Shown here: positions 1-33,600 of the stretch, one piece after another
Numbering within the stretch: position 1 is the stretch's first letter
How the letters are laid out: each line of letters opens with the position of its first letter
Assembly (NCBI GenBank): GCA_903917345.1
Contig: CAIXAE010000018.1
Coordinates: 1-33,600 of the forward strand
Source of the DNA: an uncultured Methylococcaceae bacterium
Lineage (GTDB): Bacteria > Pseudomonadota > Gammaproteobacteria > Methylococcales > Methylomonadaceae
Direction of reading: 5' to 3'
DNA length: 33,600 bases
Program-made: the position numbers and the translations under genes
The notes under the pieces: generated by a model
What the model saw: only the letters and a program-made list of their open reading frames with translations
Told to the model about the DNA's origin: nothing
The model's database searches: none

Positions 1-141
1 CAATGCCCAAACAACCAATGCTACCAATGGTATTAGTGGATCCGTCGGAGGAAATTCATCTTTTGGTAATCTTACTGTAGAAGGTGCACCAAGCCCCGGA
101 ACCGGAGGCACTACTACAAATTCTACTAATAACTCAACAAA
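1..141. repeat. Terminal direct repeat, left copy
   Basis: The first 141 bases are identical to the last 141. They lie inside a gene whose reading frame continues without interruption across the junction, so this is the overlap of a circular or circularly permuted genome. The length equals a k-mer size commonly used as the largest k in short-read assembly, so it is most likely an assembly overlap and not a packaged terminal repeat. Confidence 0.95.
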
Positions 142-661
142 CGCTGCACGAATTTCTTATCTAGCAATTGATTCTCCTTGCAACCCTTATCCCAATAGCA
201 ATACTAGCGGGTCGGGAGGAAATGGTACTGCAACGAATGGTAACGCAGGTGCTTCAGTTCCACAACCAACTACCGTACCTATGTGGTTCACCCCAGGTGG
301 TGGAGGCGGCGGCGGGGGTGCCCAAGCAGCTGCTGATGGTCTTGGTGGCAATGGAGCAACCATTTATAATGATACCCTTTTTGGATTCGCTCTTGTTGCT
401 GGCGGCACTGGGGGCACTAATACTCAGGGTGGCAATGGAAATCCGGGTATTTATGGTGTAGCTGCAGGAAGACTGGCTGCAGGTAGTGGTGCGGCGGGCG
501 GAGGATACGCATTCGGGACGGCGACCGCGAGCGCTGGAGGCACTGGTGGCTTACCCGGTGGCGGCGGCGGTGGCGGCAGTGGTGGTATCAGTGCTGTATC
601 TAATTCTGGCGCCGGTGGACAAGGTGGTGCGGGCCTAGTAATCGTAACTGAATACTTTTAA
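1..661 (+). CDS. Glycine-rich adhesin-like protein, copy 2 (3' part)
   Basis: This is the C-terminal 219 residues of a gene that starts at 33191; joined over the circle it is 309 residues, the same length as copy 1 (32252-33181). Position 1 is the third base of codon 90. The protein has long Gly runs separated by Ala/Ser/Asn/Thr and ends in VIVTEYF, as copy 1 does. Proteins of this type are annotated as glycine-rich tail-fibre or adhesin domains; in T-even-like gp38 adhesins such Gly-rich motifs form polyglycine-II helix packs that carry receptor-binding loops. A receptor-binding role is inferred. Bases 299-348 are identical to 32825-32874, and 481-549 match 33001-33069 with four differences. 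The next copy starts 8 bases after the stop, behind an AAGGAG site. Confidence 0.85.
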   Translation, partial: NAQTTNATNGISGSVGGNSSFGNLTVEGAPSPGTGGTTTNSTNNSTNAARISYLAIDSPCNPYPNSNTSGSGGNGTATNGNAGASVPQPTTVPMWFTPGGGGGGGGAQAAADGLGGNGATIYNDTLFGFALVAGGTGGTNTQGGNGNPGIYGVAAGRLAAGSGAAGGGYAFGTATASAGGTGGLPGGGGGGGSGGISAVSNSGAGGQGGAGLVIVTEYF

Positions 662-669
662 GGAGATGT

Positions 670-1581
670 ATGGCAACAAATAATGCAATTAATAATGGTG
701 GCGTTATAACAACAACATTTACCAATAGTGGTACATGGACAAAAAATAATAGAACTCGCGTTGTCAGTATCGCTTTATGGTCTGGCGGCGGCGGTGGGGG
801 GTCGGGCCGTAAGGGAACTCTGAATGCTGCGAGCGGAGGCGGTGGTGGCAATGGCGGTTCCTTTTATGCAGTCAGCTTTCCGGCAACATTTTTTCATTCT
901 TCAGAAACGGTAACTATTGGAGCCGGGGGGAATGGTGGTGCAGCCCAATCTACTGATGCAACTAACGGCATAAATGGAAGCCCAGGCGGCAATACATCTG
1001 TAGGAAATATTGTTGTTCTTGGTGGCGGTGCTGGTAGTGGCGGCGGAACAACTTCAGGAAATACTTCATCACTTTTTCCCTTACATTCATTTCTTGGTCT
1101 TGATGCCCCGGTCAGTCCGATAAATCAAGGAACATCAGGAATAGGCGGCACAGGAAGCAATCTTACCGGTACCGCTGGATCAAACAATGTTTCAAGTTCA
1201 TTTGTTGGTCTCGCTATAGCTGGTGGGGGTGGTGGTGGTGGTGGAGCAGCTACGGCAGCTGATTCAATCGGTGGTGCCGGTGGTGCAATAGTTTTTGACA
1301 TTAATGGCTACGTTGTAGCAGCTGGAGGTGCCGGATCTAATACCACCGGCGGCAACGGAAATGCGGGTCTTTATACCGTACCAAGTAACGTATTATTTGG
1401 TGGTTCTGGCGGCGCGGGCGGTGGATTTATTCATACTGCCAACACCGCTTCAAATGGCGGAAATGGAGGCTACCCGGGAGGGGCAGGCGGAGCCGGATCT
1501 GGCGGTGTAACGGCTATTGTCAGTTCTGGCGCCGGCGGAAACGGGGCAAATGGTTTGGTTTTAATTACAGAATATTTTTAA
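670..1581 (+). CDS. Glycine-rich adhesin-like protein, copy 3
   Basis: A 303-residue paralogue of the genes at 32252 and 33191. It shares the N-terminal block (NNGGVITTTF, then TWTKN, then an RxRVV strand and the first Gly run with SGRKGT) and the C-terminal TEYF. The middle is more diverged than between copies 1 and 2. AAGGAG at 660-665 precedes the ATG. The N-terminal third looks like a short beta-sandwich anchor and the rest like a polyglycine array. It is the last gene of the rightward arm, followed by a strong terminator at 1635-1660. Likely a virion-surface receptor-binding or fibre-tip protein; the function is inferred from composition and position. Confidence 0.85.
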   Translation: MATNNAINNGGVITTTFTNSGTWTKNNRTRVVSIALWSGGGGGGSGRKGTLNAASGGGGGNGGSFYAVSFPATFFHSSETVTIGAGGNGGAAQSTDATNGINGSPGGNTSVGNIVVLGGGAGSGGGTTSGNTSSLFPLHSFLGLDAPVSPINQGTSGIGGTGSNLTGTAGSNNVSSSFVGLAIAGGGGGGGGAATAADSIGGAGGAIVFDINGYVVAAGGAGSNTTGGNGNAGLYTVPSNVLFGGSGGAGGGFIHTANTASNGGNGGYPGGAGGAGSGGVTAIVSSGAGGNGANGLVLITEYF

Positions 1582-5160: not shown

Positions 5161-6216
5161 TTAATAGTTACCATACCACCAACCGAATGGATTCGCACCC
5201 AAGCCAGATTGGTCCGTATATATTGTGCTCGCTCTTTGATCACCTTGTTGAGCCAAGGTCCTTCTTAACACTAATTGCTGCTGCTTCATAAACTCAGGCA
5301 TTAATAATTGTACCGTTTCCATATCCGTTCTATCTTCCAGTACCTTCTTAGCAGCACCATAGGCAATATATTGCCACCATTGCTCCAAATCTGGCGATTG
5401 GTCGAATGCTAAAATCTCAGTGGGTTGAACATTACATTCAATGGTAACGTCGTACATCATGTCAGGAATAGGCCTTAAAAAGAATGTATCATTGTAGTAG
5501 AGAACGGTGATAGGCCGCGCTGCAGCATAAGAAGCATACTGGGCATTTATAGCAACGCCAGCTGCAGGAGGGGTAACAAAGAAAAGTTGAAACTGCCCAG
5601 TTATAAGATTAACAAAATTCTGTACTGGAGCGTATGGGGTTATAACTGGCTGAGGAATTGCTGGTATCGGACCGTTAGAACCGTAGAGGTTTTCTATAGT
5701 TAATTGAGTTCCTGTAACCGAATCAACCACCGAGCGAGAAATCCGTCCTTCCCCCTGCCCAAGAGAATTTGTTGTTGTAAAAATAGTGGAGTTAGGCATC
5801 AAGGGAAGATTGGGCAAAGTACCAGCAAACATTGTTGTTGCACCATCTCCTGTACCAACCTGAAACAGTGCTTTAATCATTGGCCATTTATTAAAGAAAT
5901 CTTCTCGAGATTGAGTGAAGTTAGTTTTATAACCTGCTATGTAAACAGGGTCAGATGAGGTTAGAATAGCATTCTTAAAATTATAAAGCGGTTGATCCAT
6001 GTCAATAATGTTCGTCGAATAGCTATCAATATTTGGTTGAGTATAAAAAGTGAATGTTTTACGCAGACTAAATAAACTCACATGCGATGGAAAGTCATAG
6101 AATACAAAAGTATTAATATACTGATCAATAGTAACATCAGACATTTGCAAGGGAGATGGAGTTCTGGTAAGATTCCTAACTTTCAAACGGATCGCGGTTA
6201 ATGTTGAATCTGGCAT
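5161..6216 (-). CDS. Head-to-tail adaptor / tail tubular protein A-like
   Basis: A 351-residue protein. The N-terminus is helical and acidic-basic mixed; the middle (about 110-245) is beta-rich with many Pro and aromatic residues; the C-terminal 90 residues return to helix with DLEQWWQYIAYGAAKK then EDRTDMETV and a Gln/Arg-rich helix. That arrangement, a helical-bundle adaptor with an inserted beta domain, resembles podovirus adaptors (T7 gp11-like, P22 gp4-like) that dock under the portal. It sits between head genes and tail genes. AAAGGAATG precedes the start. It could alternatively be another tail accessory factor; no enzymatic motif is visible. Confidence 0.6.
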   Translation of the reverse strand: MPDSTLTAIRLKVRNLTRTPSPLQMSDVTIDQYINTFVFYDFPSHVSLFSLRKTFTFYTQPNIDSYSTNIIDMDQPLYNFKNAILTSSDPVYIAGYKTNFTQSREDFFNKWPMIKALFQVGTGDGATTMFAGTLPNLPLMPNSTIFTTTNSLGQGEGRISRSVVDSVTGTQLTIENLYGSNGPIPAIPQPVITPYAPVQNFVNLITGQFQLFFVTPPAAGVAINAQYASYAAARPITVLYYNDTFFLRPIPDMMYDVTIECNVQPTEILAFDQSPDLEQWWQYIAYGAAKKVLEDRTDMETVQLLMPEFMKQQQLVLRRTLAQQGDQRASTIYTDQSGLGANPFGWWYGNY

Positions 6217-7797: not shown

Positions 7798-8751
7798 TTA
7801 AGCTGTTGGTAAAGTACTTCTCATATTTACAAGCCATTGATCGTTCAATATTCGAGAAGCTTGAGCAAACTTGTACCCGATGGTAACGTTTTGCGCTAAT
7901 GGGTCAGAATATTGCGCTGGGCGGTAAATAAATTGAGCAGTCGCACCGTCTTGACTGATGATTCCGTACGATTCACGTCCTACCACAAAAGTAGAGTATA
8001 CGTTCGCACCAAGCATTGAAGTATTAAGACTTATTGCACCAATAGAAGAAACAAGGAAGCGAACGTTTCCAACCGCACCCCATTCAGAATCCAATACATT
8101 TTGTTGAGACGGATATTGGCTTTGGTGAACAAAAGATGCTATATCTGACAATACTGACGTTAAGTCCGTGTGAGATAATCCAAAATAGGCATTTCTTACA
8201 GGGGCTGTACCAAATTTATCCTTGCCTTCAATCCCGCTTAAGAACATATAAGCGTTCTGCCCCAGCAATAATTGTGTTACTGCAGCAACGTCTGATGCTG
8301 ACAATTGTGTTGGAACGTCGGCAGAGTTACCACCAGTACAATTATAAACGCTGGTAGTTGTCAATAACATCGCTTTGGTTAATTCATCTTCAGTTTGACG
8401 GAGCGATACGCCAAGACGTAAAGCTGCTTCATTGAGCACTTGGTCTTGGTTTTGCAATACAACTTGCTCGTTAAGGGCAATGTATGTACCATACCAATTT
8501 ACTACCGCATCGATGTCTGTCGCAACGAGGTTTTGTGCTGGTGGTGTGACCCCAGAATTGCCAAGTGGAATTAAAGCTGTGTTGAGCGGAGAATATCTTC
8601 TGAAGCGCATAGTCGTACCACCGTTGCGTGGCATGCGATATTTTTCAGATGGAATATTCATAATCATGTTGGGAGTAGGAACTGAAAGTAGCTTAGCGTT
8701 AAACGTCTGTTGGACGGGCGCCGACAGTATACTCGTTGTAGTTATAGCCAT
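7798..8751 (-). CDS. Major capsid protein, N4-gp56-like (HK97 fold)
   Basis: 317 residues from the ATG at 8751, which has GAAGG five bases upstream; a longer reading would need a TTG at 8763. The N-terminal region has a basic stretch (EKYRMPRNGGTTMRFRRY) followed by a PLGNSGVTPP loop, then a long helix about residues 95-125 with LNEAALRLGVSLRQTEDE, the pattern of the N4-gp56 family of capsid proteins. The C-terminus (VGRESYGI, then a VTIGYKFAQASRIL strand-helix and NDQWLVNM) fits the family's A-domain end. Order scaffold-capsid is standard for podophages. It should be the most abundant virion protein. Confidence 0.8.
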   Translation of the reverse strand: MAITTTSILSAPVQQTFNAKLLSVPTPNMIMNIPSEKYRMPRNGGTTMRFRRYSPLNTALIPLGNSGVTPPAQNLVATDIDAVVNWYGTYIALNEQVVLQNQDQVLNEAALRLGVSLRQTEDELTKAMLLTTTSVYNCTGGNSADVPTQLSASDVAAVTQLLLGQNAYMFLSGIEGKDKFGTAPVRNAYFGLSHTDLTSVLSDIASFVHQSQYPSQQNVLDSEWGAVGNVRFLVSSIGAISLNTSMLGANVYSTFVVGRESYGIISQDGATAQFIYRPAQYSDPLAQNVTIGYKFAQASRILNDQWLVNMRSTLPTA

Positions 8752-17539: not shown

Positions 17540-17785
17540 TCAAAAATCTAAATCCGGTAATAGATCCTGAAGTGCAAAAAATATAACTCTTTTAGTTTTA
17601 TTGCCGGTACAAGCTATCATGGGAAAGTACCCATGGGCAGGATCAGGTATATGCATACTCTGGACTGTCGAAAAAAAGCCATAACATAGAGTCAATGTCT
17701 CATCATTGGCGCCTCTTGGAAGTGCATCAATAACCTTAACAAGGTCATCTCTAATATCCATAAAATTAATCACTGGCTTAGTCAT
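17540..17785 (-). CDS. Small hypothetical protein, paralogue of the next upstream gene
   Basis: 81 residues, similar over its length to 17785-18033: both start with a Thr and a short strand, have an acidic helix, a Leu-rich LTL/LLEGF segment, then PMIA, GNK, FAL and LPDL blocks. The C-terminal half PMIACTGNKTKRVIFFAL reads like a two-strand unit. Its ATG overlaps the upstream stop (TAATG). The pair lies upstream of the RusA gene. Function not recognised. Confidence 0.6.
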   Translation of the reverse strand: MTKPVINFMDIRDDLVKVIDALPRGANDETLTLCYGFFSTVQSMHIPDPAHGYFPMIACTGNKTKRVIFFALQDLLPDLDF

Positions 17786-18033
17786 TACTTCAACTCCAAA
17801 TCAGGCAAAACTGCTTTCAGTGCAAAGAGATGAATTCTACCAGACTTATTACCAAGCAGGGCAATCATTGGTATAGAAGGCCCATCATGTGGCCTTACTA
17901 AAGCTAGATCGCTGGCAAACGGAGTATTAACAAATCCTTCAAGCAATGTAAGTGATTCGTTAACATCAATTTCAATCTTGTTTAATGCAGCTAGTACGTC
18001 ATTCTTTATATTCTCAAACTTTAACTCTGTCAT
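17785..18033 (-). CDS. Small hypothetical protein, paralogue of the next downstream gene
   Basis: 82 residues with the same block order as 17540-17785 (PMIALLGNK, then HLFALKAVLPDLEL). AAAGGAGTGAG is an excellent ribosome site. The two genes probably arose by tandem duplication and have since diverged to roughly a third to 40 percent identity by eye. Without a family match the role is open; location suggests DNA metabolism or early-late transition. Confidence 0.6.
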   Translation of the reverse strand: MTELKFENIKNDVLAALNKIEIDVNESLTLLEGFVNTPFASDLALVRPHDGPSIPMIALLGNKSGRIHLFALKAVLPDLELK

Positions 18034-18069: not shown

Positions 18070-18972
18070 TCAGTTCAAAGAGATCGCCTCTTCTTCCAAC
18101 TCAACATCATCTGCAGGGATTCTTATAATAAGATTCTTTATATGCTTCAACGCAACCTGCAAGGAACGATCCTGGGCAGTCGGTCCATCGGGCCCCTTGC
18201 CTATCTCTATCCGTAGCTTTTCCGCAACGGAGATGGCAAATCTACCCCATAAGTCAGGGTTCCAGTTATGATTCACCCAATCTATGAGATCTTTATCTTC
18301 ACGAGACCATGACTTTTTATGGGGAACATTCTTTCTATCTATAACCAGTTGCTGCTCTGAATTTTCAACTAAAAAATCAGGGGGCACCGGTACAACTTCC
18401 GTATCCATCCAGTTTCTTAAAGCCCTCCAATCATTACCATGAACTTCCCTCAAGTGGGGGAACCAACTAAACATCTTCTTCTTCTGGCCTGAAAGTAAGT
18501 AACGCCAATGGCTATTAATAACATTGTTCACGGGGTTGCGATTAGCCTCTAACTGGTATGCCCGTTTAAAGTTATCTGTTAAGAACTTGTCACGTTCTTC
18601 TGGGGTGGCTCGAGCATCCCAAGGAGGAGTTAAATCTTTCTCTGTCCAATTATTATCATTTGTCAGGTTTATTGGTGGAATTGCTGCATCGAAGGGCATC
18701 CAGTCATTCTCAACACCTAATTCTTTCTTCAAGCGAAACATACCATCGTAATCTATTGCCAAGCCATAGCTTTTTGCATAGTCCGTACATAAGCGTGTTA
18801 ACTCTTCCCACCTCTTTTGCGCAGTGAGATTCTCTTTTGTAATTCTCAATTGTAGAATGCCAACGCCGAATTTGAGCGTATCAGCATCAAATCCCATTAG
18901 CATGCATTTCCCCACAACAGAAAGGGGAATCAAGTTCATTTCATGTATATCTTTTCGTATCTTTTCTTGCAT
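18070..18972 (-). CDS. Hypothetical protein, first gene of the main leftward operon
   Basis: 300 residues, soluble, unusually rich in Trp (about ten, e.g. NDWMPF, NNWTEKDLTPPW, NSHWRY, NDWRAL, KKSWSRED). Predicted mainly helical with a central RYLLSGQKKKMFSWFPHLREV. No P-loop, nuclease or polymerase motif is visible. It follows a TTGACG/TAAAGT promoter (19014-19042) and has AGG upstream of ATG. In phages of this layout the first gene before resolvase and terminase is often a replication protein, but this is only context. No catalytic residues can be named. Confidence 0.7.
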   Translation of the reverse strand: MQEKIRKDIHEMNLIPLSVVGKCMLMGFDADTLKFGVGILQLRITKENLTAQKRWEELTRLCTDYAKSYGLAIDYDGMFRLKKELGVENDWMPFDAAIPPINLTNDNNWTEKDLTPPWDARATPEERDKFLTDNFKRAYQLEANRNPVNNVINSHWRYLLSGQKKKMFSWFPHLREVHGNDWRALRNWMDTEVVPVPPDFLVENSEQQLVIDRKNVPHKKSWSREDKDLIDWVNHNWNPDLWGRFAISVAEKLRIEIGKGPDGPTAQDRSLQVALKHIKNLIIRIPADDVELEEEAISLN

Positions 18973-19013
18973 TGTAACCTGTTAAAGTAAGTATGTATTA
19001 TGCTACCTACTTA

Positions 19014-19042
19014 ACTTTATCATTAGACTACGGGCTCGTCAA
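19014..19042 (-). promoter_or_regulatory. Promoter of the main leftward operon
   Basis: On the minus strand TTGACG (19042-19037), a 17-base spacer and TAAAGT (19019-19014), about 40 bases before the ATG at 18972. It shares TTGACRAGCCCSTA with the promoter at 19604-19632. A near-dyad overlaps its -10 region and could be an operator. Confidence 0.6.
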
Positions 19043-19519
19043 GCAAAAAGTAGTTAAAAGCCTTTTAAATTCAGGGTTTTTCGCAAGTGATATAATATTC
19101 ATGAGTAAAAAGCATCAAAGTAATAAATATGGGGTTTGGGATATATCTTTAATTCTTTATCTTGGTGCCAAATTTAAATTAAGAGAGAAGAAAATATAAA
19201 TTTAATAGAAAGACTCATTAGATACCAGAATCGTTCGTTGTATTGTAAATTTATTCGTATTTGGTTTTGGTGATTATATTCTTCCCGTTTAAGCTTCTTC
19301 CACAACGATATTGTCTTATTGTGCAACTTTATGCAGAAAAATCAGTGTTCCGAGAAACTCGTGTAGAAAAAGCATTTTTTTCTTTGCCTTTGAAATGCAA
19401 CTGCATTTGGCGTGCACCATACATGCCCTATGTGTGCATTATGCGTACGCGTATACGCGCCGCCATGACGCGCATTACTTACAAGTAAGAGTATATATAT
19501 ATTAATATTAATATTTTAA

Positions 19520-19597
19520 TAAAATAAAATGGCGTAAGGCACTTACGGCCCGCCATTTATTTTAGAGGAGCCCTCTCGCTCAGGTCACCCTCGCTCG
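19520..19597 (-). ncRNA. Candidate small RNA of about 78 nucleotides
   Basis: A leftward transcript starting about 7 bases after the TAAGAT box (19604-19609) would begin near 19597, form a first hairpin with CTCTCG/CGAGAG ends, and then a second, long hairpin (19527-19534 with 19551-19558, inner stem GTAAG/CTTAC) followed by a U-rich tail. No ribosome site with an open frame is seen within it. Promoter, compact structure and terminator together resemble a free-standing bacterial or phage small RNA. Transcription is not shown by sequence alone; the region could instead be a leader of the leftward operon. Confidence 0.45.
19527..19558. terminator. Bidirectional terminator-like hairpin
   Basis: AAATGGCG (19527-19534) pairs perfectly with CGCCATTT (19551-19558), with a second stem GTAAG/CTTAC inside. 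The minus strand continues T, A, TTTT; the plus strand continues TTTA-like T runs. It would close the small RNA transcript leftward and stop anything arriving from the left. Confidence 0.65.
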
Positions 19598-19603
19598 AGA
19601 GCT

Positions 19604-19632
19604 ATCTTATGGCGGTTTTAGGGGCTTGTCAA
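19604..19632 (-). promoter_or_regulatory. Near-consensus leftward promoter
   Basis: Minus strand TTGACA (19632-19627), a 17-base spacer and TAAGAT (19609-19604): perfect -35, ideal spacing, four of six -10 bases. It points at the structured stretch ending in the hairpin at 19527-19558 and not at a nearby gene. Confidence 0.65.
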
Positions 19633-19708
19633 GTTATTTTTTTAGAGGGTATATTTATAAAATTTATATTTCTTTACAGTCGAGATTAAATATAAAGAAA
19701 GCCATAAA

Positions 19709-19726
19709 CCCTCCAATAAAGGAGGG
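19709..19726. other. Small GC hairpin
   Basis: CCCTCC and GGAGGG form a 6-bp stem around AATAAA. Leftward it is followed by TTTATGG, so it may be a weak second terminator behind the stronger one at 19790-19821. Confidence 0.45.
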
Positions 19727-19789
19727 CTCATAACAAAATAAAAAAAATGAGAGTAATAAATGAGAATAATAAAAAGGAAAATAATCAAA

Positions 19790-19821
19790 CCTCTTACACA
19801 AGCAGGGCGGAGTGTAAGAGG
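19790..19821 (-). terminator. Terminator of the early leftward operon
   Basis: CCTCTTACAC (19790-19799) and GTGTAAGAGG (19812-19821) form a perfect 10-bp stem. On the minus strand it is followed by TTTGATTATTTT, 39 bases after the stop of the last early gene (19860-20195). Confidence 0.75.
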
Positions 19822-19859
19822 CCAAGTAAATAAACAGTTATATATTATATTAACTTTGC

Positions 19860-20195
19860 TTATAAAAATCCATAGATAATTCCCGTATTGTTTTTTACAA
19901 GACGCTCTATTTTATCAATATAATCTTCTGTGTTGCCTAATGGATTATCCAAGAACTCAGCAAAGTGTTTTCCAGTGCGAATAAGCTTATCCCAATCTAT
20001 TTTTGTAACAACAATAAAGGGCAATTTAGCAGCATAATGCATAAAAATACGATCTTTCTCAGCTGCACGTGCATTTTTTATAAAAGACTCTAATTCTTCT
20101 TCCATTGCTTCAAAAGCTATAACCCTATTCCTGGCTAGTAACTTTATTAACTTCACTCTCAGGGCAAGTCTTCTCTTTTTCTGCAGATCTGTCAT
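19860..20195 (-). CDS. Regulator-family paralogue, duplicated copy 1
   Basis: 111 residues, about half identical to 20207-20542, with which it shares MTDLQK start, AMEEEL, HYAAKLPF.VVT, FL.NP, EDY.D..ER and YGFL end. Mostly helical. The C-terminal part (VVTKIDWDK, then FAEFLDNP, then DYIDKIERL) lines up with the C-terminal domain of the 170-residue HTH protein at 21637-22149 (EQFIGFIVNPED, then FVIDKVKNYL). It may therefore be a derived Cro/antirepressor-like or partner-binding protein. The gene ends the early leftward operon; the terminator follows. The duplication is also visible in the DNA as matching ends 347 bases apart. Confidence 0.65.
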   Translation of the reverse strand: MTDLQKKRRLALRVKLIKLLARNRVIAFEAMEEELESFIKNARAAEKDRIFMHYAAKLPFIVVTKIDWDKLIRTGKHFAEFLDNPLGNTEDYIDKIERLVKNNTGIIYGFL

Positions 20196-20206
20196 TTTTG
20201 CTCCTC

Positions 20207-20542
20207 TTATAAAAATCCATACAATATTTCTTTCTTTTTCTTGAGAAAGCGCTCCATCCCATCAACATAATCTTCACTATAATCCGAAGGATTCTCCAAA
20301 AAATTAGCAAGGGCTGCTCTTGCACCCAAAATCCATGCCCAATTTATTCTGGTAACAACACCAAAAGGCAACTTAGCAGCATAATGTATAAAAAGCATAT
20401 CTTCTTTGGTACCACGTGCAACGCTTATGAAATCATCTAATTCTTCTTCCATAGCCCTAACAGTGATTACTCTATTACTGGCTAATAAATCTAAAATGTT
20501 TTCTCTCACGGCAAGCCTTCTTTCTTTCTGCAGATCTGTCAT
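20207..20542 (-). CDS. Regulator-family paralogue, duplicated copy 2
   Basis: 111 residues, paralogue of 19860-20195. Differences concentrate in the helix around residues 38-52 and around residues 64-76 (FGVVTRINWAWILGA here). An acidic EEELDD is followed by the C-terminal FLENPSDYSEDYVDGMERFL motif of the family. GGAG lies upstream of the ATG. It directly follows the 120-residue relative at 20545 in the same operon. Function inferred only as regulatory or host-interaction. Confidence 0.65.
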   Translation of the reverse strand: MTDLQKERRLAVRENILDLLASNRVITVRAMEEELDDFISVARGTKEDMLFIHYAAKLPFGVVTRINWAWILGARAALANFLENPSDYSEDYVDGMERFLKKKKEILYGFL

Positions 20543-20544
20543 TT

Positions 20545-20907
20545 TTACTCCTCTTTATCTTTTAAGTGAGCCTTAACAAGAAATAACTCGATCTTATCTA
20601 TAAAAGCTGTTGAGCAATCATTAGGATCTTTCAAGAAATCAATTAATTGTCCTAAGTCTGATTCTATTGCATTAAGATTCTCTTGCGCCCAGTCGCTATC
20701 AAAACATATAAAAGAAAAAGATGAGTCGCTGCCCTTTAACATCTTTAAAGCTTCTTCTTTTGCCAAAGCATTTAGATACACTATATGTGGCGATGTCTTT
20801 CCAATAAATTTCTTCATGAGCATCTGTAAAAATTTGAACTGAAGCTCTTCTCTTCTTTTTTTTTCAATTCTATTCTTTTCTAAACACTCTACTATATATT
20901 CTAACAT
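20545..20907 (-). CDS. Regulator-family paralogue, 120 residues
   Basis: Starts with a highly charged helical region (KNRIEKKRREELQFKF), then a middle with SFSFICFDSDWAQ and a C-terminal LIDFLKDPNDCSTAFIDKIELFL that matches the FL.NP....DKIE.FL signature of four other genes in this block. The match to the HTH protein is confined to the last 45 residues. The stop is 2 bases before the next ATG. Acidic C-terminal tail KDKEE. No DNA-binding motif is complete, so a protein-protein role, such as antagonist of the repressor, is possible. Confidence 0.6.
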   Translation of the reverse strand: MLEYIVECLEKNRIEKKRREELQFKFLQMLMKKFIGKTSPHIVYLNALAKEEALKMLKGSDSSFSFICFDSDWAQENLNAIESDLGQLIDFLKDPNDCSTAFIDKIELFLVKAHLKDKEE

Positions 20908-20910
20908 TTC

Positions 20911-21042
20911 TTATCCCTGATTACCGAAAAGCATAAAGAATATTATCACTGCTGTAACAAAAATAACCAAGTATGCTAAAAAGTTAAAAAACTTGCTTAT
21001 AGCACAAGGTTCTTCTGGTATTGGTTCCCAATGGTTATTCAT
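20911..21042 (-). CDS. 43-residue single-span membrane protein
   Basis: Reads MNNHWEPIPEEP, then a hydrophobic helix of about 22 residues (FFNFLAYLVIFVTAVIIFFM, residues 18-37) and a short LFGNQG tail. TTGGAGTGGAAC lies upstream, within the end of the 21035-21403 gene, and the 8-base overlap suggests translational coupling. Could be a small holin-like, antiholin or host-membrane effector; no family match. Confidence 0.6.
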   Translation of the reverse strand: MNNHWEPIPEEPCAISKFFNFLAYLVIFVTAVIIFFMLFGNQG

Positions 21043-21403
21043 AGTTCCACTCCAAATGACTCATTGATTCATCTATCTTAGAAAGAACATGGTCAGGTGC
21101 TGCTTCAGGTCTTAATAAAAATTGCTTCAACTCTTCAACTGTTACCTCACATTCTTCTGCACATTCTTTAAACCATTCTTCATCAACAGCTATGAAAGGT
21201 AAAGTATATTTTAATGTAACTGGGTCTTGAACGTGATATAAGTTTTTGCCTATCGCATCATGTTCTTCATTGTACATGCCACCATATTCACCTACTAATA
21301 AATCTCGCATACCCTTAAGATCGCCTCTGTCACACAAACTTAAAGGCTTGTAATCATAATCATTTTCCAAAGCTTTGCTAATGAAATCATTATCTATTGG
21401 CAT
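21035..21403 (-). CDS. Regulator-family paralogue, 122 residues
   Basis: N-terminal 70 residues are unique (acidic, Tyr/Gly-rich, DRGDLKGMRDLL). From about residue 66, YTLPFIAVDEEW, then CEVTVEELKQFLLRPEAA, then HVLSKIDESM aligns with LPF..V....W, .FL.NP and DKIE of the other family members, and with the second domain of the HTH protein (GITPEQFIGFIVNPED, FVIDKVK). A possible degenerate helix-turn-helix. It has its own promoter with operator repeats (21432-21490), so its expression is probably repressed by the HTH protein. Confidence 0.6.
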   Translation of the reverse strand: MPIDNDFISKALENDYDYKPLSLCDRGDLKGMRDLLVGEYGGMYNEEHDAIGKNLYHVQDPVTLKYTLPFIAVDEEWFKECAEECEVTVEELKQFLLRPEAAPDHVLSKIDESMSHLEWNYE

Positions 21404-21431
21404 TTCTTTTCTTTCTTTTGGTTTTTAAATC

Positions 21432-21451
21432 TCTATGTAAATCTATGTAAA
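21432..21451. promoter_or_regulatory. Operator: two tandem TCTATGTAAA boxes
   Basis: TCTATGTAAA at 21432-21441 and again at 21442-21451, head to tail with a 10-bp period, so both face the same side of the helix. The pair lies just downstream of the -10 box of the leftward promoter at 21462-21490. The same decamer occurs at 22220-22229 in the divergent control region. Confidence 0.75.
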
Positions 21452-21461
21452 TCACTTAATC

Positions 21462-21490
21462 AATATAGCGTATATAAAAGGCTTTTGCAA
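21462..21490 (-). promoter_or_regulatory. Leftward promoter for the 122-residue gene
   Basis: Minus strand TTGCAA (21490-21485), a 17-base spacer and TATATT (21467-21462), 59 bases before the ATG at 21403. The two operator boxes lie over the expected start of transcription, where a bound protein would block it. Confidence 0.6.
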
Positions 21491-21514
21491 GAAAATAAAT
21501 TAATTATTATTTCT

Positions 21515-21634
21515 TTACTGTTTTGATATTAAATCAATTATGAGCTCAACGGCCATAGCAGCAAATATAATGAACAATATCATATCCGGGTTGTGGTACG
21601 CGTAGATGCATAAAAGCACTTTAACTAATTTCAT
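21515..21634 (-). CDS. 39-residue single-span membrane protein
   Basis: Reads MKLVKVLLCIYAYHNPD then a hydrophobic stretch MILFIIFAAMAVELIIDLI. The ATG is 2 bases after the stop of the HTH gene (21637), so it would be translated by coupling; the upstream GGGATGA can serve as a ribosome site. A second tiny membrane protein of the early operon; function unknown. Confidence 0.5.
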   Translation of the reverse strand: MKLVKVLLCIYAYHNPDMILFIIFAAMAVELIIDLISKQ

Positions 21635-21636
21635 AA

Positions 21637-22149
21637 TTATTCATCCCATCCTTGATGGCTTTCTATCTTCTCTATCATTTGATTCACTGTTTTTATGCCA
21701 TACAAATAGTTCTTAACCTTATCTATAACAAAGTTCCCGCAATCTTCAGGGTTAACTATAAAGCCTATAAACTGCTCTGGTGTAATGCCAATATCTTCAG
21801 ACCATTCAGTATAAGATCTCTTAAACGTCACAAATACTTCTAACAACTCATTGCGCATATTCTCATATATCGACTTAGTGGCAACTGGCTGAATTATCTT
21901 TCTTTTATGAAGCTCTTCCTTTCTTTTATCTTCTATGACCTTCTTCTTATTGATCTTATATATATATTCAACAATCTTAACGGAGACTATCCGCGAAGGT
22001 ACATGGGTCCCATTTAAAAAGTTAATTAATGTATGCTGAGTAATCCCAATTCTCTTCGCATGCTTTATCAATGTAGCAGGTTCATTCTTTAACGCTTCAA
22101 TAAATGCAGCATGTAATTCTTTGTGGTCTTTGTAAAAATCATCTTGCAT
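21637..22149 (-). CDS. Two-domain HTH repressor-like protein
   Basis: 170 residues, first gene of the early leftward operon. Domain 1 (about 10-66): EALKNEPATLIKHAKRIGI then TQHTLINFLNGTHVPS then VSVKIVEYI, the helix pattern of Cro/CI-type DNA-binding domains (turn Gly at 35, recognition helix 37-45). A Lys/Arg-rich linker (67-95) leads to a second copy-like unit (about 98-152): RSYTEWSEDIGI, TPEQFIGFIVNPED, FVIDKVKNYL. The two halves are alignable, suggesting internal duplication. It probably binds the TCTATGTAAA/TTTACATA boxes in its own promoter region and at 21432-21451. GGAG precedes the ATG. The role as lysogeny-type repressor or early-gene switch is inferred; no integrase was found. 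Confidence 0.7.
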   Translation of the reverse strand: MQDDFYKDHKELHAAFIEALKNEPATLIKHAKRIGITQHTLINFLNGTHVPSRIVSVKIVEYIYKINKKKVIEDKRKEELHKRKIIQPVATKSIYENMRNELLEVFVTFKRSYTEWSEDIGITPEQFIGFIVNPEDCGNFVIDKVKNYLYGIKTVNQMIEKIESHQGWDE

Positions 22150-22176
22150 GGCTACTCCGCTGGTTTAATTTAACAT

Positions 22177-22231
22177 GTTTTACATAAATTTACATAATAA
22201 TGCTTGACATACAGCATAGTCTATGTAAAAC
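22177..22231. promoter_or_regulatory. Divergent control region with face-to-face promoters and operators
   Basis: Arms GTTTTACATA (22177-22186) and TATGTAAAAC (22222-22231) are a perfect 10-bp inverted repeat. TTTACATAA is directly repeated at 22179-22187 and 22189-22197, a 10-bp period. Leftward promoter: TAGACT (22223-22218), 18 bases, TATTAT (22199-22194). Rightward promoter: TTGACA (22204-22209), 16 bases, TAAAAC (22226-22231). The operator boxes cover the -10 of each promoter, as in lambdoid switches. Confidence 0.7.
22204..22231 (+). promoter_or_regulatory. Rightward early promoter
   Basis: A perfect TTGACA at 22204-22209 with a weak -10 (TAAAAC at 22226-22231), 40 bases before the ATG at 22271. 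The -10 overlaps a TCTATGTAAA operator box. Confidence 0.6.
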
Positions 22232-22270
22232 TAAAAGTGAATTAATTTTTTAACAATTTCGGGAGCTCAC

Positions 22271-22579
22271 ATGGAAAGAAAATTTCACTGCAATCAATGT
22301 AATAATGAATACACTGCTAAATACTATTTCTTAGCACCTTTCTGTTCTGAAAGATGTGAAGAACTGTTCTTAGATTATGCCCCAGCAGACCTTATAGAAA
22401 AGGTCTATAGCACGCACAAAGAAACCATAGATTCACAAGAAGAAATGCCGTACCATAATATCAATACTATCTATTGTGAATCATGTAGAAGTACGATAGA
22501 TTATGGTTATATAGATGATCGTGTTATCATTACATGCTCTGCTCTATGCTCAGATGTATTTTTAGACACCGTAAAATAG
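22271..22579 (+). CDS. Double zinc-knuckle protein
   Basis: 102 residues with two similar Cys clusters: C7-C10 with C25-C29, and C69-C72 with C89-C93, each CX2C...CX3C. Each half is about 25 residues with aromatic residues between the Cys pairs, typical of zinc ribbons or treble clefs used for nucleic-acid or protein binding. The middle (30-62) is acidic and helical. GGGAG precedes the ATG; it is the first gene of the rightward early operon and is followed by a terminator at 22592. It may modify host transcription, but that is conjecture. Confidence 0.75.
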   Translation: MERKFHCNQCNNEYTAKYYFLAPFCSERCEELFLDYAPADLIEKVYSTHKETIDSQEEMPYHNINTIYCESCRSTIDYGYIDDRVIITCSALCSDVFLDTVK

Positions 22580-22591
22580 AAGATGAAGTAT

Positions 22592-22628
22592 GGCGCTCCT
22601 AACTCCCTTTCAAGGGGCGCCTGCTTTT
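22592..22628 (+). terminator. Terminator after the zinc-knuckle gene
   Basis: GGCGCTCC (22592-22599) with GGGGCGCC (22614-22621), an 8-bp stem with one G-T pair, followed by TGCTTTT. It would separate or attenuate expression of the first rightward gene from the ERF genes. Confidence 0.7.
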
Positions 22629-22639
22629 AAAAGGAAAAT

Positions 22640-22714
22640 ATGGACGACATACTAAAAATAATGCTTTGCATAGTGTTTTATCATTGGTTACATGATTTAA
22701 TTAAAGGCGCATAA
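22640..22714 (+). CDS. 24-residue hydrophobic peptide
   Basis: ATG at 22640 with AAAAGGA upstream reads MDDILKIMLCIVFYHWLHDL then IKGA and stops at 22714, with an amphipathic to hydrophobic helix. The next gene's ribosome site overlaps its stop. It could be a leader peptide for the downstream membrane protein or a genuine small membrane peptide; no more can be said. Confidence 0.35.
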   Translation: MDDILKIMLCIVFYHWLHDLIKGA

Positions 22715-22724
22715 AAGGATGAAA

Positions 22725-22985
22725 ATGCAAGAAGATAAAAATATAAAAATAGACACGCTGCCAGAAAAGAAAATAATCAAAAAAGATAAGCCAGCTATAG
22801 CAGCCCCACCATCAAATAATAAAATAGAGACAATGCAGCCACGTATAGACTTCTCATTCGTTAGAGCAGAATCCCCCTTCCAATCAATAGTAGATATAAT
22901 TATATGTATCGGTGCTATTTATGGGTTTGCTAACGTATGCTATCTTGTGTGCCGCTTCATAATGACAATATTCTCACCATTTTAA
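22725..22985 (+). CDS. Small membrane protein with C-terminal span
   Basis: 86 residues from the ATG at 22725, which has AAAAGG at suitable distance; the ATG at 22719 would have none. The N-terminal 45 residues are Lys-rich and polar, followed by a C-terminal hydrophobic segment of about 25 residues (SIVDIIICIGAIYGFANVCYL) and a second short one. Cotranscribed with the ERF gene, which begins 9 bases after the stop. Function unknown. Confidence 0.55.
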   Translation: MQEDKNIKIDTLPEKKIIKKDKPAIAAPPSNNKIETMQPRIDFSFVRAESPFQSIVDIIICIGAIYGFANVCYLVCRFIMTIFSPF

Positions 22986-22994
22986 GGTGTTTAA

Positions 22995-23615
22995 ATGGAA
23001 ATCACTAAAAATCAACTATTCAATCTCTCGTATCAAGTTGATCTTCTTTTTACTGCTCTTGCAGCTGCTCAAGCAGAGTTCCCTGCAATTAAAAAAACTG
23101 ATCAAGCTCATAGACATAAATATGCGAATATCAATTCAGTTATAGAGTCAGTACGTCCTGTGTTAGCAAAGCATGGTCTCTCAATACAACAGCATCCTTC
23201 AAGTGATTCAGAGGGCAATCCAATACTCACTACTATGTTGTGTCACATATCAGGTCAAAACTCTCTATCAAGCATCAGGATCATCCATGATCCATTAGAT
23301 ATACAAAGCCTTGGCTCTGGTATTACCTATACCAGAAGGTACGCGCTCGTTTCAATTTTGGGGCTTGAACAAGAAGATGATGATGGTAATTATGATAAAA
23401 ATAAAAAACAGGAATATCCCAGGCCTGCCATACCATCAGCAGAAGACAAAATGTTAATAAACGAAGCTCAATTAACTCAATTGGTTGATAAGATTAAAAA
23501 AAGCGCCAAGCCAATCGAAACTATAGAAAAGATTAAGCATCACACGCGTTTGAGCGAAAGTACTTTCTGCAATATGACCGTAATGCAGTTCAAATGGGTC
23601 TTAAAAAATACATGA
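22995..23615 (+). CDS. erf: ERF-family single-strand annealing protein
   Basis: 206 residues. Contains the family core: KTDQAHRHKYANINSVIESV around 34-53, RPVLAKHGLSIQQ to 66, and the hallmark GSGITYTRRYALVSILGLE followed by the EDDDGN acidic cluster around 107-132. ERF proteins form rings, coat single-stranded DNA and anneal complementary strands. In phage P22 Erf circularises permuted genomes and supports recombination. The C-terminal 70 residues are a separate charged helix region. With the RusA-like gene on the left arm it makes a small recombination set. AAGGTG precedes the ATG. The gene ends at the 23644 terminator. Confidence 0.9.
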   Translation: MEITKNQLFNLSYQVDLLFTALAAAQAEFPAIKKTDQAHRHKYANINSVIESVRPVLAKHGLSIQQHPSSDSEGNPILTTMLCHISGQNSLSSIRIIHDPLDIQSLGSGITYTRRYALVSILGLEQEDDDGNYDKNKKQEYPRPAIPSAEDKMLINEAQLTQLVDKIKKSAKPIETIEKIKHHTRLSESTFCNMTVMQFKWVLKNT

Positions 23616-32105: not shown

Positions 32106-32255
32106 ATGGACACGGGATCAATTATTAAGTTAGCTACTTTATGTGTTTTTATTATCGTCGGTATAGCTTCTCGCATTTGGTTGATACATGGTAGTAAGTT
32201 AGATCACATATCTGAGTCAGTAATCAAAGATGAAACTAGAATAGGAAAAATGTGA
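32106..32255 (+). CDS. 49-residue membrane protein
   Basis: M-D-T-G start, a hydrophobic span of about 20 residues (IIKLATLCVFIIVGIASRIW), then a polar C-terminal part with SKLDHISESVIKDE that may form a short coiled coil. Ribosome site AAAGGAGCG. Its stop codon overlaps the GTG start of the next gene. With its secreted neighbour it makes a two-gene envelope unit, possibly lysis- or exclusion-related; weak inference. Confidence 0.6.
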   Translation: MDTGSIIKLATLCVFIIVGIASRIWLIHGSKLDHISESVIKDETRIGKM

Positions 32256-33181
32256 GTACAATTAATGTTATAAATAATGGTGGTGTTATAACTACTGTTT
32301 TTTCCACACCGGGTACCACTTCATGGACTAAGAATTCTCGAACGAGAATAGTGAATGTCCAAATTTGGTCCGGTGGGGGAGGTGGTGGGTCGGGCAGAAA
32401 GGGAACAGCCAATTCGTCAGGAGGAGGAGGAGGCGGAGGTGGTGGTAATTTTATGTCAGCTATATTTCCTGCAATATACTTCAATTCTACAGAAACAGTA
32501 GTTGTTGGCTCTGGAGGGGCAGGTGGTAATGCTCAATCAACTGATGCTACCAATGGCAATCCAGGTTTAAATACGAACACAGGATCTTCTTTTAGTAATA
32601 TTAAAGTTTCTTTACCTGTTGTGGGATCCGCTGGAATAGCAGGAACATCTGCCGCCCAAACTCAATCTCCAACACTGAACTTTTTAGGCCTTACGGCACC
32701 TCCTGGCCTTTTCCCTACGAGTGGGGCTTCAGGACAAGGAGGGAATGGTACAACAACCACAGGAACTAATGGAAATAATAACGTTGATCCTGAAGGTCCT
32801 ACAACGCCATGGTTTATACCAACCGGTGGAGGCGGCGGCGGGGGTGCCCAAGCAGCTGCTGATGGTCTTGGTGGAAGTGGTGGCGCTATTTATTCTGATG
32901 CGAGCGTTTTAGTGGTTGCAGGTGGAATTGGGGGCACCAACACTCAAGGTGGCAATGGGCAACCGGGTATTTATGGGTCTACCGGTAATGGATTGTGGGC
33001 AGGCAGTGGTGCGGCGGGCGGAGGATACGCCTTTGGGACGACGACCGCGAGCGCTGGAGGCACTGGTGGTCAGCCGGGAGGTGGTGGCGGAGGCGGATCT
33101 GGCGGTGTCAGTGCTGTATCAAGCTCTGGCGCAGGTGGACAAGGCGGTGCAGGCCTGGTCATCGTAACAGAATATTTTTAA
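32252..33181 (+). CDS. Glycine-rich adhesin-like protein, copy 1
   Basis: 309 residues starting at GTG (32252), which overlaps the previous stop; TAGGAAAAAT is upstream. The start is supported by homology: copies 2 and 3 begin MSTNN and MATNN at the same point. N-terminal NNGGVITTVF, SWTKN, SRTRIVNVQIW, then SGRKGT and a first Gly run; C-terminal GLVIVTEYF. The middle contains repeated GG..G, SGG and NAQ segments. Likely a polyglycine-rich receptor-binding protein, cotranscribed with copies 2 and 3. GTG versus ATG in the paralogues may set a lower level for this copy. Confidence 0.85.
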   Translation: MSTINVINNGGVITTVFSTPGTTSWTKNSRTRIVNVQIWSGGGGGGSGRKGTANSSGGGGGGGGGNFMSAIFPAIYFNSTETVVVGSGGAGGNAQSTDATNGNPGLNTNTGSSFSNIKVSLPVVGSAGIAGTSAAQTQSPTLNFLGLTAPPGLFPTSGASGQGGNGTTTTGTNGNNNVDPEGPTTPWFIPTGGGGGGGAQAAADGLGGSGGAIYSDASVLVVAGGIGGTNTQGGNGQPGIYGSTGNGLWAGSGAAGGGYAFGTTTASAGGTGGQPGGGGGGGSGGVSAVSSSGAGGQGGAGLVIVTEYF

Positions 33182-33190
33182 GGAAAAACT

Positions 33191-33600
33191 ATGAGTACAA
33201 ATAATGCGATAAATAATGGCGGTGTAGTAATGACAGTTTACACCTCCAATAATACCTGGACTAAAAACCCTAGAACCAAAGTTGTTAATATTCAAATGTG
33301 GGGTGGCGGCGCGGGCGGCGGATCTGGTCGCAAAGGCACTGCAGGCTCATCAGGTGGTGGTGGTGGTGGTGGTGGTTCAGACTTCTTATGTGCAACGTTT
33401 CCCGCATCTTTTTTTGGATCTACTGTTGGAGTAGTTGTAGGTTCTGGTGGTGGTGGTGGCAATGCCCAAACAACCAATGCTACCAATGGTATTAGTGGAT
33501 CCGTCGGAGGAAATTCATCTTTTGGTAATCTTACTGTAGAAGGTGCACCAAGCCCCGGAACCGGAGGCACTACTACAAATTCTACTAATAACTCAACAAA
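33191..33600 (+). CDS. Glycine-rich adhesin-like protein, copy 2 (5' part)
   Basis: Starts at ATG 33191 after AAGGAAAAACT and runs off the contig end, continuing at position 1. Residues 1-90 are encoded before 33460, where the terminal repeat begins. It opens like the others (NNGGVVMTVY, TWTKN, PRTKVVNIQMW, then Gly run and SGRKGT). Together with 1-661 it is a complete 309-residue gene. Confidence 0.85.
   Translation, partial: MSTNNAINNGGVVMTVYTSNNTWTKNPRTKVVNIQMWGGGAGGGSGRKGTAGSSGGGGGGGGSDFLCATFPASFFGSTVGVVVGSGGGGGNAQTTNATNGISGSVGGNSSFGNLTVEGAPSPGTGGTTTNSTNNST
33460..33600. repeat. Terminal direct repeat, right copy
   Basis: Identical to 1-141; removing one copy yields a circle of 33,459 bp with the glycine-rich gene intact. 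Confidence 0.95.

What the first reader, a model, noticed from the sequence alone, without database searches (positions are those of the whole stretch)
19860..22149. Five-member regulator family expanded beside an HTH repressor
The 170-residue HTH protein has two alignable halves. The second half's signature (FI/FL.NPE, then DK(V/I)..(Y/F)L) recurs at the C-termini of four downstream genes (111, 111, 120 and 122 residues) that have lost or replaced the N-terminal DNA-binding part. A repressor surrounded by its own partial copies suggests antagonists or mixed oligomers tuning one switch, an arrangement I do not recognise from described phages.
Basis: partly seen in the sequence, partly recalled or inferred. 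Interest (0 to 1): 0.7.

Follow-up and report, generated by a model that had tools for sequence, protein, structure and literature searches.

The report
Phage regulator and its module paralogues
A small phage carries a DNA-binding control protein whose second half looks like an acidic copy of its own DNA-binding domain, and four neighbouring genes carry relatives of that second half without the first, so they are candidate modifiers of one genetic switch.

Summary
The observation largely holds. The window appears to be a complete circular phage. The 170-aa protein (E) is predicted to be two four-helix HTH-like domains: a basic N-terminal one (+7) and an acidic C-terminal one (-7). The C-terminal module recurs in the next four genes (D, C, B, A): strong evidence for C, good for D, weaker for A/B. 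C is colinear with E from residue 59, in effect E without its first HTH. A sister phage has E plus two such proteins. Three more distant phages with the same neighbourhood have one or two single-HTH genes there and no detected module proteins. A candidate operator, CATA-N6-CATA (direct repeat, one helical turn), lies in the divergent promoter region of 4 of 5 phages and again before gene D. Best reading: E is an autoregulated repressor, and the module proteins modulate it by binding E, with E also controlling D. DNA binding and protein contact are inferred, not shown. The closest precedent is FseA/QseM (antagonistic HTH-domain paralogues of a conjugative element). Ten open-access literature searches turned up no described phage case.

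The parts
21637..22149 (-). E, 170 aa: HTH1 (residues about 9-62, basic) + long linker helix (to 85) + HTH2-like module (94-163, acidic)
   Evidence: AlphaFold2 helices 9-22, 27-34, 38-46, 53-85, 94-109, 113-120, 124-132, 139-163, mean pLDDT 80.9, pTM 0.42; Foldseek to HipB and the SinR N-domain, TM by target 0.64-0.67 but E-values 0.12-0.23; charges
21035..21403 (-). D, 122 aa, net charge -17; C-terminal module, own N-terminus
   Evidence: held-out profile E=6.9e-4; charge; no equivalent in the sister phage, where the next gene overlaps the end of E
20545..20907 (-). C, 120 aa: linker helix + acidic module, colinear with E 59-149
   Evidence: score 89 vs null max 55, BLASTP 2e-8 for the single comparison, held-out 3.6e-6
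20207..20542 (-). B, 111 aa, paralogue of A; module with a shortened helix 2-3 region
   Evidence: 54% identical to A; held-out 2e-4; model mean pLDDT 75.3, no convincing PDB match
19860..20195 (-). A, 111 aa, paralogue of B
   Evidence: held-out 9.8e-4; DNA 77% identical to B over 218 nt
22178..22197 (+). candidate operator pair TTTTACATAA/ATTTACATAA, 10-bp spacing, in the divergent promoter region at the leftward (E) promoter
22221..22230 (-). third candidate operator half-site (TTTTACATAG), near the -10 region of the rightward promoter
   Evidence: promoter elements read by eye
21433..21452 (-). second candidate operator pair (ATTTACATAG twice, 10-bp spacing) upstream of D
19701..19734 (-). 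terminator-like hairpin beyond A (14 pairs), probable end of the E-A transcript
   Evidence: 4 terminator-like sites found in 18900-23100, 1.8 expected
22271..22579 (+). divergent zinc-ribbon-like gene, 102 aa, first gene of the rightward unit (followed by 22719-22985 and ERF at 22995-23615)
   Evidence: the order HTH / zinc-ribbon-like / small gene / ERF is also seen in L003, L018 and L019

Best explanation
E is the phage's early switch regulator. Its basic N-terminal HTH reads WACATARATT-like half-sites arranged as 10-bp direct repeats and represses its own promoter, the divergent zinc-ribbon/ERF promoter and the promoter of gene D. Its acidic C-terminal HTH-derived module is a protein-protein domain. 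C (E without HTH1), D and probably A/B carry that module and act on E by forming mixed complexes that cannot bind the operator properly, so they tune or relieve repression; E repressing D while D counters E would give a two-state switch. Shown by computation: the predicted two-domain E, the charge inversion, the family relation of E/C/D, the repeated operator-like sites. Inferred: DNA binding, repression, heteromers, antagonism, and A/B acting like C/D.
For: Two HTH-like domains in one chain (halves match as profiles). N-half +7, C-half -7 in E and +5/-5 in its sister; C-terminal parts of D -11 and C -9. C colinear with E from the linker helix on. The helix-3 motif (Q/E)HTLI is present in E, its sister, L018, L019 and G311; CATA-N6-CATA lies in the HTH/zinc-ribbon promoter region of 4 of 5 of these phages, where 2,000 shuffle sets gave at most 2 of 5 and 1,000 sets gave at most 3 of 5 for any 4-mer. 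All 5 exact WTTTACATAD sites of the 33.6-kb window lie at the E and D promoters. Precedent for antagonism by a charge-inverted HTH paralogue: FseA/QseM (PMC10359603).
Against: No interaction or DNA-binding data. A/B modules are neutral (0), whole A is basic (+5, pI 9.6), their helix 2-3 region is shortened, and in the B model helices 2 and 3 are merged with only one of five models above pLDDT 67 and no convincing PDB match. The sister phage lacks the 10-bp repeat and D although its HTH1 has the same helix-3 motif; in G311 the gene next to the promoter is a different 99-aa HTH and the QHTLI gene comes second. The motif was first picked by eye. With one mismatch allowed WTTTACATAD is no commoner than chance (32 vs 32.3 expected); TTTACATA occurs 6 times, one at 5938 elsewhere, 2.6 expected, 5 of 100 shuffles reaching 6; CATA-N6-CATA occurs 4 times in the window, 1.9 expected, 15 of 100 shuffles reaching 4. 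Taken alone, the 10-bp self-similarity of the L018 and L003 regions is not significant (P 0.156 and 0.505). Promoter-like hits are at chance level (20 vs 17.5). The promoter regions are related by descent, so shuffles overstate their independence.
Confidence: 0.42

Rival explanations
1. The module proteins are fast-turning accessory early proteins aimed at host targets (host takeover or counter-defence). They arose from the regulator by duplication but no longer touch the switch.
For: Gene content differs between the two sister phages (4 vs 2 module genes). A/B have dN 0.31/dS 0.70, a higher ratio than E/E', ERF, the 300-aa gene and RusA between the sisters, though A/B are paralogues and the others orthologues. 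The same early region holds another tandem pair (17540-18033, E=3e-14).
Against: C keeps E's linker helix as well as the module; D sits behind a copy of the E operator pair. No counter-defence library was searched; PADLOC (defence proteins) gave only B 0.029 and C 0.039 among the module proteins.
Confidence: 0.33
2. E is mainly an activator or a Cro/CII-like decision protein of a temperate or plasmid-like phage rather than a repressor; the module proteins are co-regulators.
For: 10-bp direct repeats resemble the kind of site that lambda CII reads (direct repeat: PMC9986795 passages; the 10-bp spacing is recalled). No integrase is named among the matches of the 33 window proteins scanned, so a classical lysogeny repressor is not established.
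Against: The sites overlap or follow the -10 elements as I read them by eye, a repressor position; the promoter reading itself is weak.
Confidence: 0.15
3. All five are DNA-binding regulators, each with its own operator.
For: The module derives from an HTH; a single-HTH protein of a related phage (L018) is the best non-family hit in 9 of 12 held-out runs. Whole A is basic.
Against: Acidic modules in E, C and D; the helix 2-3 spacing departs from E by +4 in C and D and -1 in A and B (counted by eye). I did not search systematically for further operators.
Confidence: 0.1
4. The downstream genes are decaying duplicates with no present role.
For: High divergence; gene number differs between the window and the sister.
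Against: Open frames of 111-122 codons; purine-rich leaders before C, B and A and A/B dN/dS below 1; intact equivalents in the sister.
Confidence: 0.08

Closest known systems
FseA / QseM (DUF2285) of ICEMlSymR7A, PMC10359603
   Same: An HTH-derived domain occurs both in a DNA-binding regulator (positive surface) and in a separate small paralogue with negative charge that lacks the regulator's other domain and antagonises it; an extended helix 2-3 turn there, and a longer helix 2-3 region in C and D here.
   Different: Not the same family by Pfam (no DUF2285 match at E<=1); conjugative element, not phage; there the antagonist mimics the regulator's DNA-binding domain, here the shared module is the regulator's second, acidic one; one antagonist there, up to four module genes here.
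Cro/CI-type (XRE) HTH regulators of phage divergent promoters
   Same: Predicted lambda-repressor-like fold, position at a divergent early promoter, operator-like repeats.
   Different: Two HTH-fold domains in tandem, the second acidic; sequence scores below Pfam cut-offs; direct repeats, where CI/Cro operators are inverted repeats (recalled).
Lambda CII
   Same: Direct-repeat sites (PMC9986795 passages; the 10-bp CII spacing is recalled).
   Different: No CII family among the Pfam and PHROG results for E; CII has a single HTH domain and is an activator (recalled).
phiCDKH01 XRE repressor with annotated antirepressors (PMC11172241, passages)
   Same: XRE regulator with two HTH domains that represses the promoter of neighbouring putative antirepressor genes.
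   Different: Its two annotated antirepressors carry a KilAC domain; nothing in the passages makes them paralogues of the repressor.

Membership tests
XRE / HTH_3, HTH_19 (Pfam) | profile match over the curated cut-off | tested here: not met
   E: HTH_19 16.5 of 30.2 bits, HTH_3 13.1 of 23
XRE / HTH_3, HTH_19 (Pfam) | four-helix lambda-repressor-like fold | tested here: met
   by prediction only: with HipB, SinR, HigA2 among the best PDB fold matches (no E-value below 0.001)
FseA/QseM DUF2285 | DUF2285 sequence family | tested here: not met
   no match at E<=1 for the five proteins
FseA/QseM DUF2285 | antagonist binds the regulator and blocks it | not testable with these tools
   no complex prediction or assay available
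FseA/QseM DUF2285 | charge inversion between the DNA-binding HTH and the paralogue's HTH-like domain | tested here: inconclusive
   net charge only: E HTH1 +7; modules of E -7, C -9, D -11; but A and B 0; no surface was computed
Lambda CII | CII sequence family | tested here: not met
   no CII family among the results for E
Lambda CII | operator is a direct repeat one helical turn apart | tested here: inconclusive
   CATA-N6-CATA in 4 of 5 phage promoter regions, absent in L003; that it is an operator is inferred
SinI-type anti-repressor | SinI profile | tested here: not met
   15.9 of 31.4 bits, in E and not in the small proteins

The most novel reading that the evidence does not exclude
A phage switch built from one regulator and a lineage-specific set of its own charge-inverted HTH modules: an HTH fused to an acidic second HTH, the second half then spread through four further genes as dedicated antagonists, one of which was placed under the regulator's own operator to close a mutual-repression loop.
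Probability: 0.28. Interest if true: 0.66.

Novelty: new variant of a known kind. Interest (0 to 1): 0.47.

Why it matters
If true, it is a phage counterpart of the FseA/QseM principle: a DNA-binding domain is duplicated, its charge reversed, and the copy reused as a ready-made partner domain, here multiplied to several genes. Relatives that look like stages (one HTH; two single-HTH genes; a two-HTH protein plus 2 module genes; the same plus 4) would make the stepwise origin of an antagonist family testable.

Tried and rejected
Recent truncation of E as the origin of all four: not borne out except that A and B are recent copies of each other; identities are 21-30% to C and 22-24% to B. Homology of N-termini (000 shuffles a pair): E-C P=0.001, the A/B/sister-126 group 0.000, C-A 0.021, sister linker-C 0.021, C-sister-135 0.038; all other pairs, bar the two E linkers with each other, 0.075 or more.

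Homologue searches for E: 1 contig of IMG/VR, none in genome contigs, no hit in phages at E<=1, 1 of 311 genomes of the order (its own), 4 of 101 relatives at E<=0.1 including its own, the other three at 0.02-0.04. B as a single query found no relative; C and D were not scanned for on their own. The 300-aa neighbour was found only in the sister, in its own genome of 201 of the family and not in phages. The ERF alignment found nothing in genome contigs; ERF led to L018, L019 and L027. L020-L025 are more distant ERF relatives; I took them only through an ORF listing (partly cut), the profile scans and, for one L020 protein, Pfam (HTH_3). The L019 69-aa HTH found only its own contig.

Literature: ten searches of an open-access library without subscription journals or preprints. 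Seen: PMC11172241 passages; PMC10359603 abstract, outline and sections 20 and 25; PMC9986795 passages; all other papers only in listings. That I found nothing like this described for phages rests on these searches alone.

Host: unnamed. DotI/IcmL and Rep3_N gave no match in the host genome, but the DotI/IcmL control rang in no genome, so that one says nothing.
Full report
What the window is. The window is the whole contig C18 of a 2.48-Mb, 45-contig genome. Its first and last 141 bases are identical, so it reads as one complete circular phage genome of about 33.46 kb. PHROG matches give terminase, portal, major head and tail proteins, RusA and ERF. Among the 33 window proteins put through Pfam or PHROGs no match is named integrase; lifestyle is open. 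ARAGORN found no tRNA.

The five genes. E (170 aa), D (122), C (120), B (111) and A (111) lie on the minus strand in this order, leftward from a divergent promoter region whose other arm carries a zinc-ribbon-like gene, a small gene and ERF. A terminator-like hairpin follows A (a weaker one of 5 pairs lies inside B). Two tiny hydrophobic ORFs (39 and 43 codons) lie between E and D and between D and C.

E is two HTH-like domains. AlphaFold2, with an alignment of five sequences, gives helices 9-22, 27-34, 38-46, 53-85 and then 94-109, 113-120, 124-132, 139-163, mean pLDDT 80.9; pTM is 0.42, so the relative placing of the halves is not known. Foldseek lists HipB, the SinR N-domain and similar proteins, without any E-value below 0.001; in BFVD the best value is 0.002. 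The halves match each other as profiles (E=1.3e-6). Single-sequence tests are uneven: the sister's C-half matches the single HTH of L018 at 10.8 standard deviations and E's C-half at 5.4, but the L019 HTHs at only 1.2-2.7.

The module in D, C, B, A. In a held-out test (train without the group, search 793 ORFs of at least 40 aa from ten sources), the C-terminal part finds E, C, D, B and A ahead of every non-family ORF; the sister's 135-aa protein also (0.014), its 126-aa protein not (0.13, rank 10). Profile comparison links E's C-half with C/D/sister-135 (3.8e-6, probability 87%) but only weakly with A/B/sister-126 (0.014, probability 3%); A/B/sister-126 with C/D/sister-135 is 0.0024, probability 12%, and with HTH1 0.11. 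The B model has helices 3-22, 28-44, 47-55, 60-65, 68-83, 90-102, 104-107, so helices 2 and 3 of the module appear merged; four of five models have a mean pLDDT below 67, and the best PDB match has E=1.1. I therefore call A/B probable, not certain, members.

Charge. E 1-85 is +7 and 94-170 is -7; the sister +5 and -5. C-terminal parts: D -11, C -9, sister-126 -8, sister-135 -2, A and B 0. Whole D is -17; whole A is +5. DNA contact by the modules of E, C and D is therefore unlikely, an inference from net charge and not from surfaces; for A it cannot be said.

Relatives. The sister phage (IMGVR_UViG_3300004092_000126) has E at 62%, then a 135-aa and a 126-aa module protein, the second beginning MTELQKERR like A and B. 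It has no D; there the next gene overlaps the end of E, so D with its operator pair and the two tiny ORFs is extra in the window phage or lost in the sister. Three further phage contigs have one (L018) or two (L019, G311) single-HTH genes in place of E. In L018 and L019 the zinc-ribbon-like gene, small gene and ERF stand beside it; in G311 (the record behind L027) the HTH genes lie at one contig end and ERF at the other, and the two ends share bases by eye, so the same order holds if it is circular. The profile of the eight family members found nothing in those three records; records may be fragments.

Operators. WTTTACATAD occurs exactly five times in the window, at 22178, 22188, 22221(-) and 21433(-), 21443(-). 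The motif was first seen by eye. Its core TTTACATA is the only non-low-complexity 8-mer with five copies within 900 bases in the window; 2 of 100 shuffles of a 7-kb segment had any such 8-mer. A sixth TTTACATA lies at 5938. With one mismatch the count is exactly chance (32 vs 32.3). CATA-N6-CATA lies in the HTH/zinc-ribbon promoter region of the window, L018, L019 and G311, not L003; 2,000 shuffle sets gave at most 2 of 5, and for any 4-mer 1,000 sets gave at most 3 of 5. By a plain 10-bp self-similarity test the two window regions and L019 stand out (P 0.002 or less) and L018 and L003 do not (0.156, 0.505). L003 has an inverted pair of one-mismatch sites at 7936 and 7972, but such sites are at chance level in that locus (19 vs 15.5). 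The helix-3 motif (Q/E)HTLI, shared by E, its sister, L018, L019 and the second HTH gene of G311, fits a shared site.

How it most likely works. E binds these repeats at its own, the divergent and the D promoter, and represses. Its acidic module serves oligomer contacts. C, D and perhaps A/B enter mixed complexes through the same module and weaken or tune E. E over D and D against E would make a two-state switch. The binding, the repression and the antagonism are inferred; only the anatomy is computed. The main rival is that the module genes are host-directed accessory proteins: their set differs between the sisters, and A/B have the highest dN/dS of the five pairs tested (0.31/0.70; E/E' 0.26/2.37; ERF 0.23/1.66; 300-aa gene 0.27/1.96; RusA 0.11/1.99; the last four are orthologue pairs with dS near or beyond saturation).

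Comparison. FseA/QseM (PMC10359603: abstract, outline and sections 20 and 25) shows that an HTH-derived, negatively charged paralogue lacking the partner domain can block its regulator. This works alike in outline; membership fails (no DUF2285 match). CII reads a direct repeat (PMC9986795 passages), but no CII family match was found. The phiCDKH01 repressor (PMC11172241 passages) also has two HTH domains and represses neighbouring antirepressor genes of another kind.

Verdict. Real and more structured than a motif coincidence; a new variant of a known kind, with the functional half unproved.

Noticed in passing
window 17540-18033 (-): Two adjacent 81/82-aa genes are paralogues of each other (35% identity, E=3e-14); the sister phage has longer, similar-looking genes at L003 11141-11864, so tandem duplication is common in this early region.
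   Followed up: partly
window 21515-21634 and 20911-21042 (-): Two tiny hydrophobic ORFs (39 and 43 aa) flank D; they lie in the stretch that the sister phage lacks.
   Followed up: no
window 1-1581 and 32252-33600: Several glycine-rich tail-fibre-like genes in tandem look like diverged copies of each other and run across the contig ends.
   Followed up: no
window 1-141 and 33460-33600: Identical 141-base ends, as an assembler leaves on a circular molecule.
   Followed up: yes
L003 13508-13732 and 14060-14284: Another pair of similar small genes in the sister phage (both hold the string RPIKSD), seen in the ORF list.
   Followed up: no
window 18070-18972 (-): 300-aa protein conserved in the sister (63%) with no Pfam or PHROG match at E<=1; L018 2586-3617 shares the string KKKMF. 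Role unknown.
   Followed up: partly
window 19433-19474: Overlapping imperfect palindrome beyond the terminator, in a long stretch without a large ORF between A and the 300-aa gene; the sister has a similar long gap.
   Followed up: no
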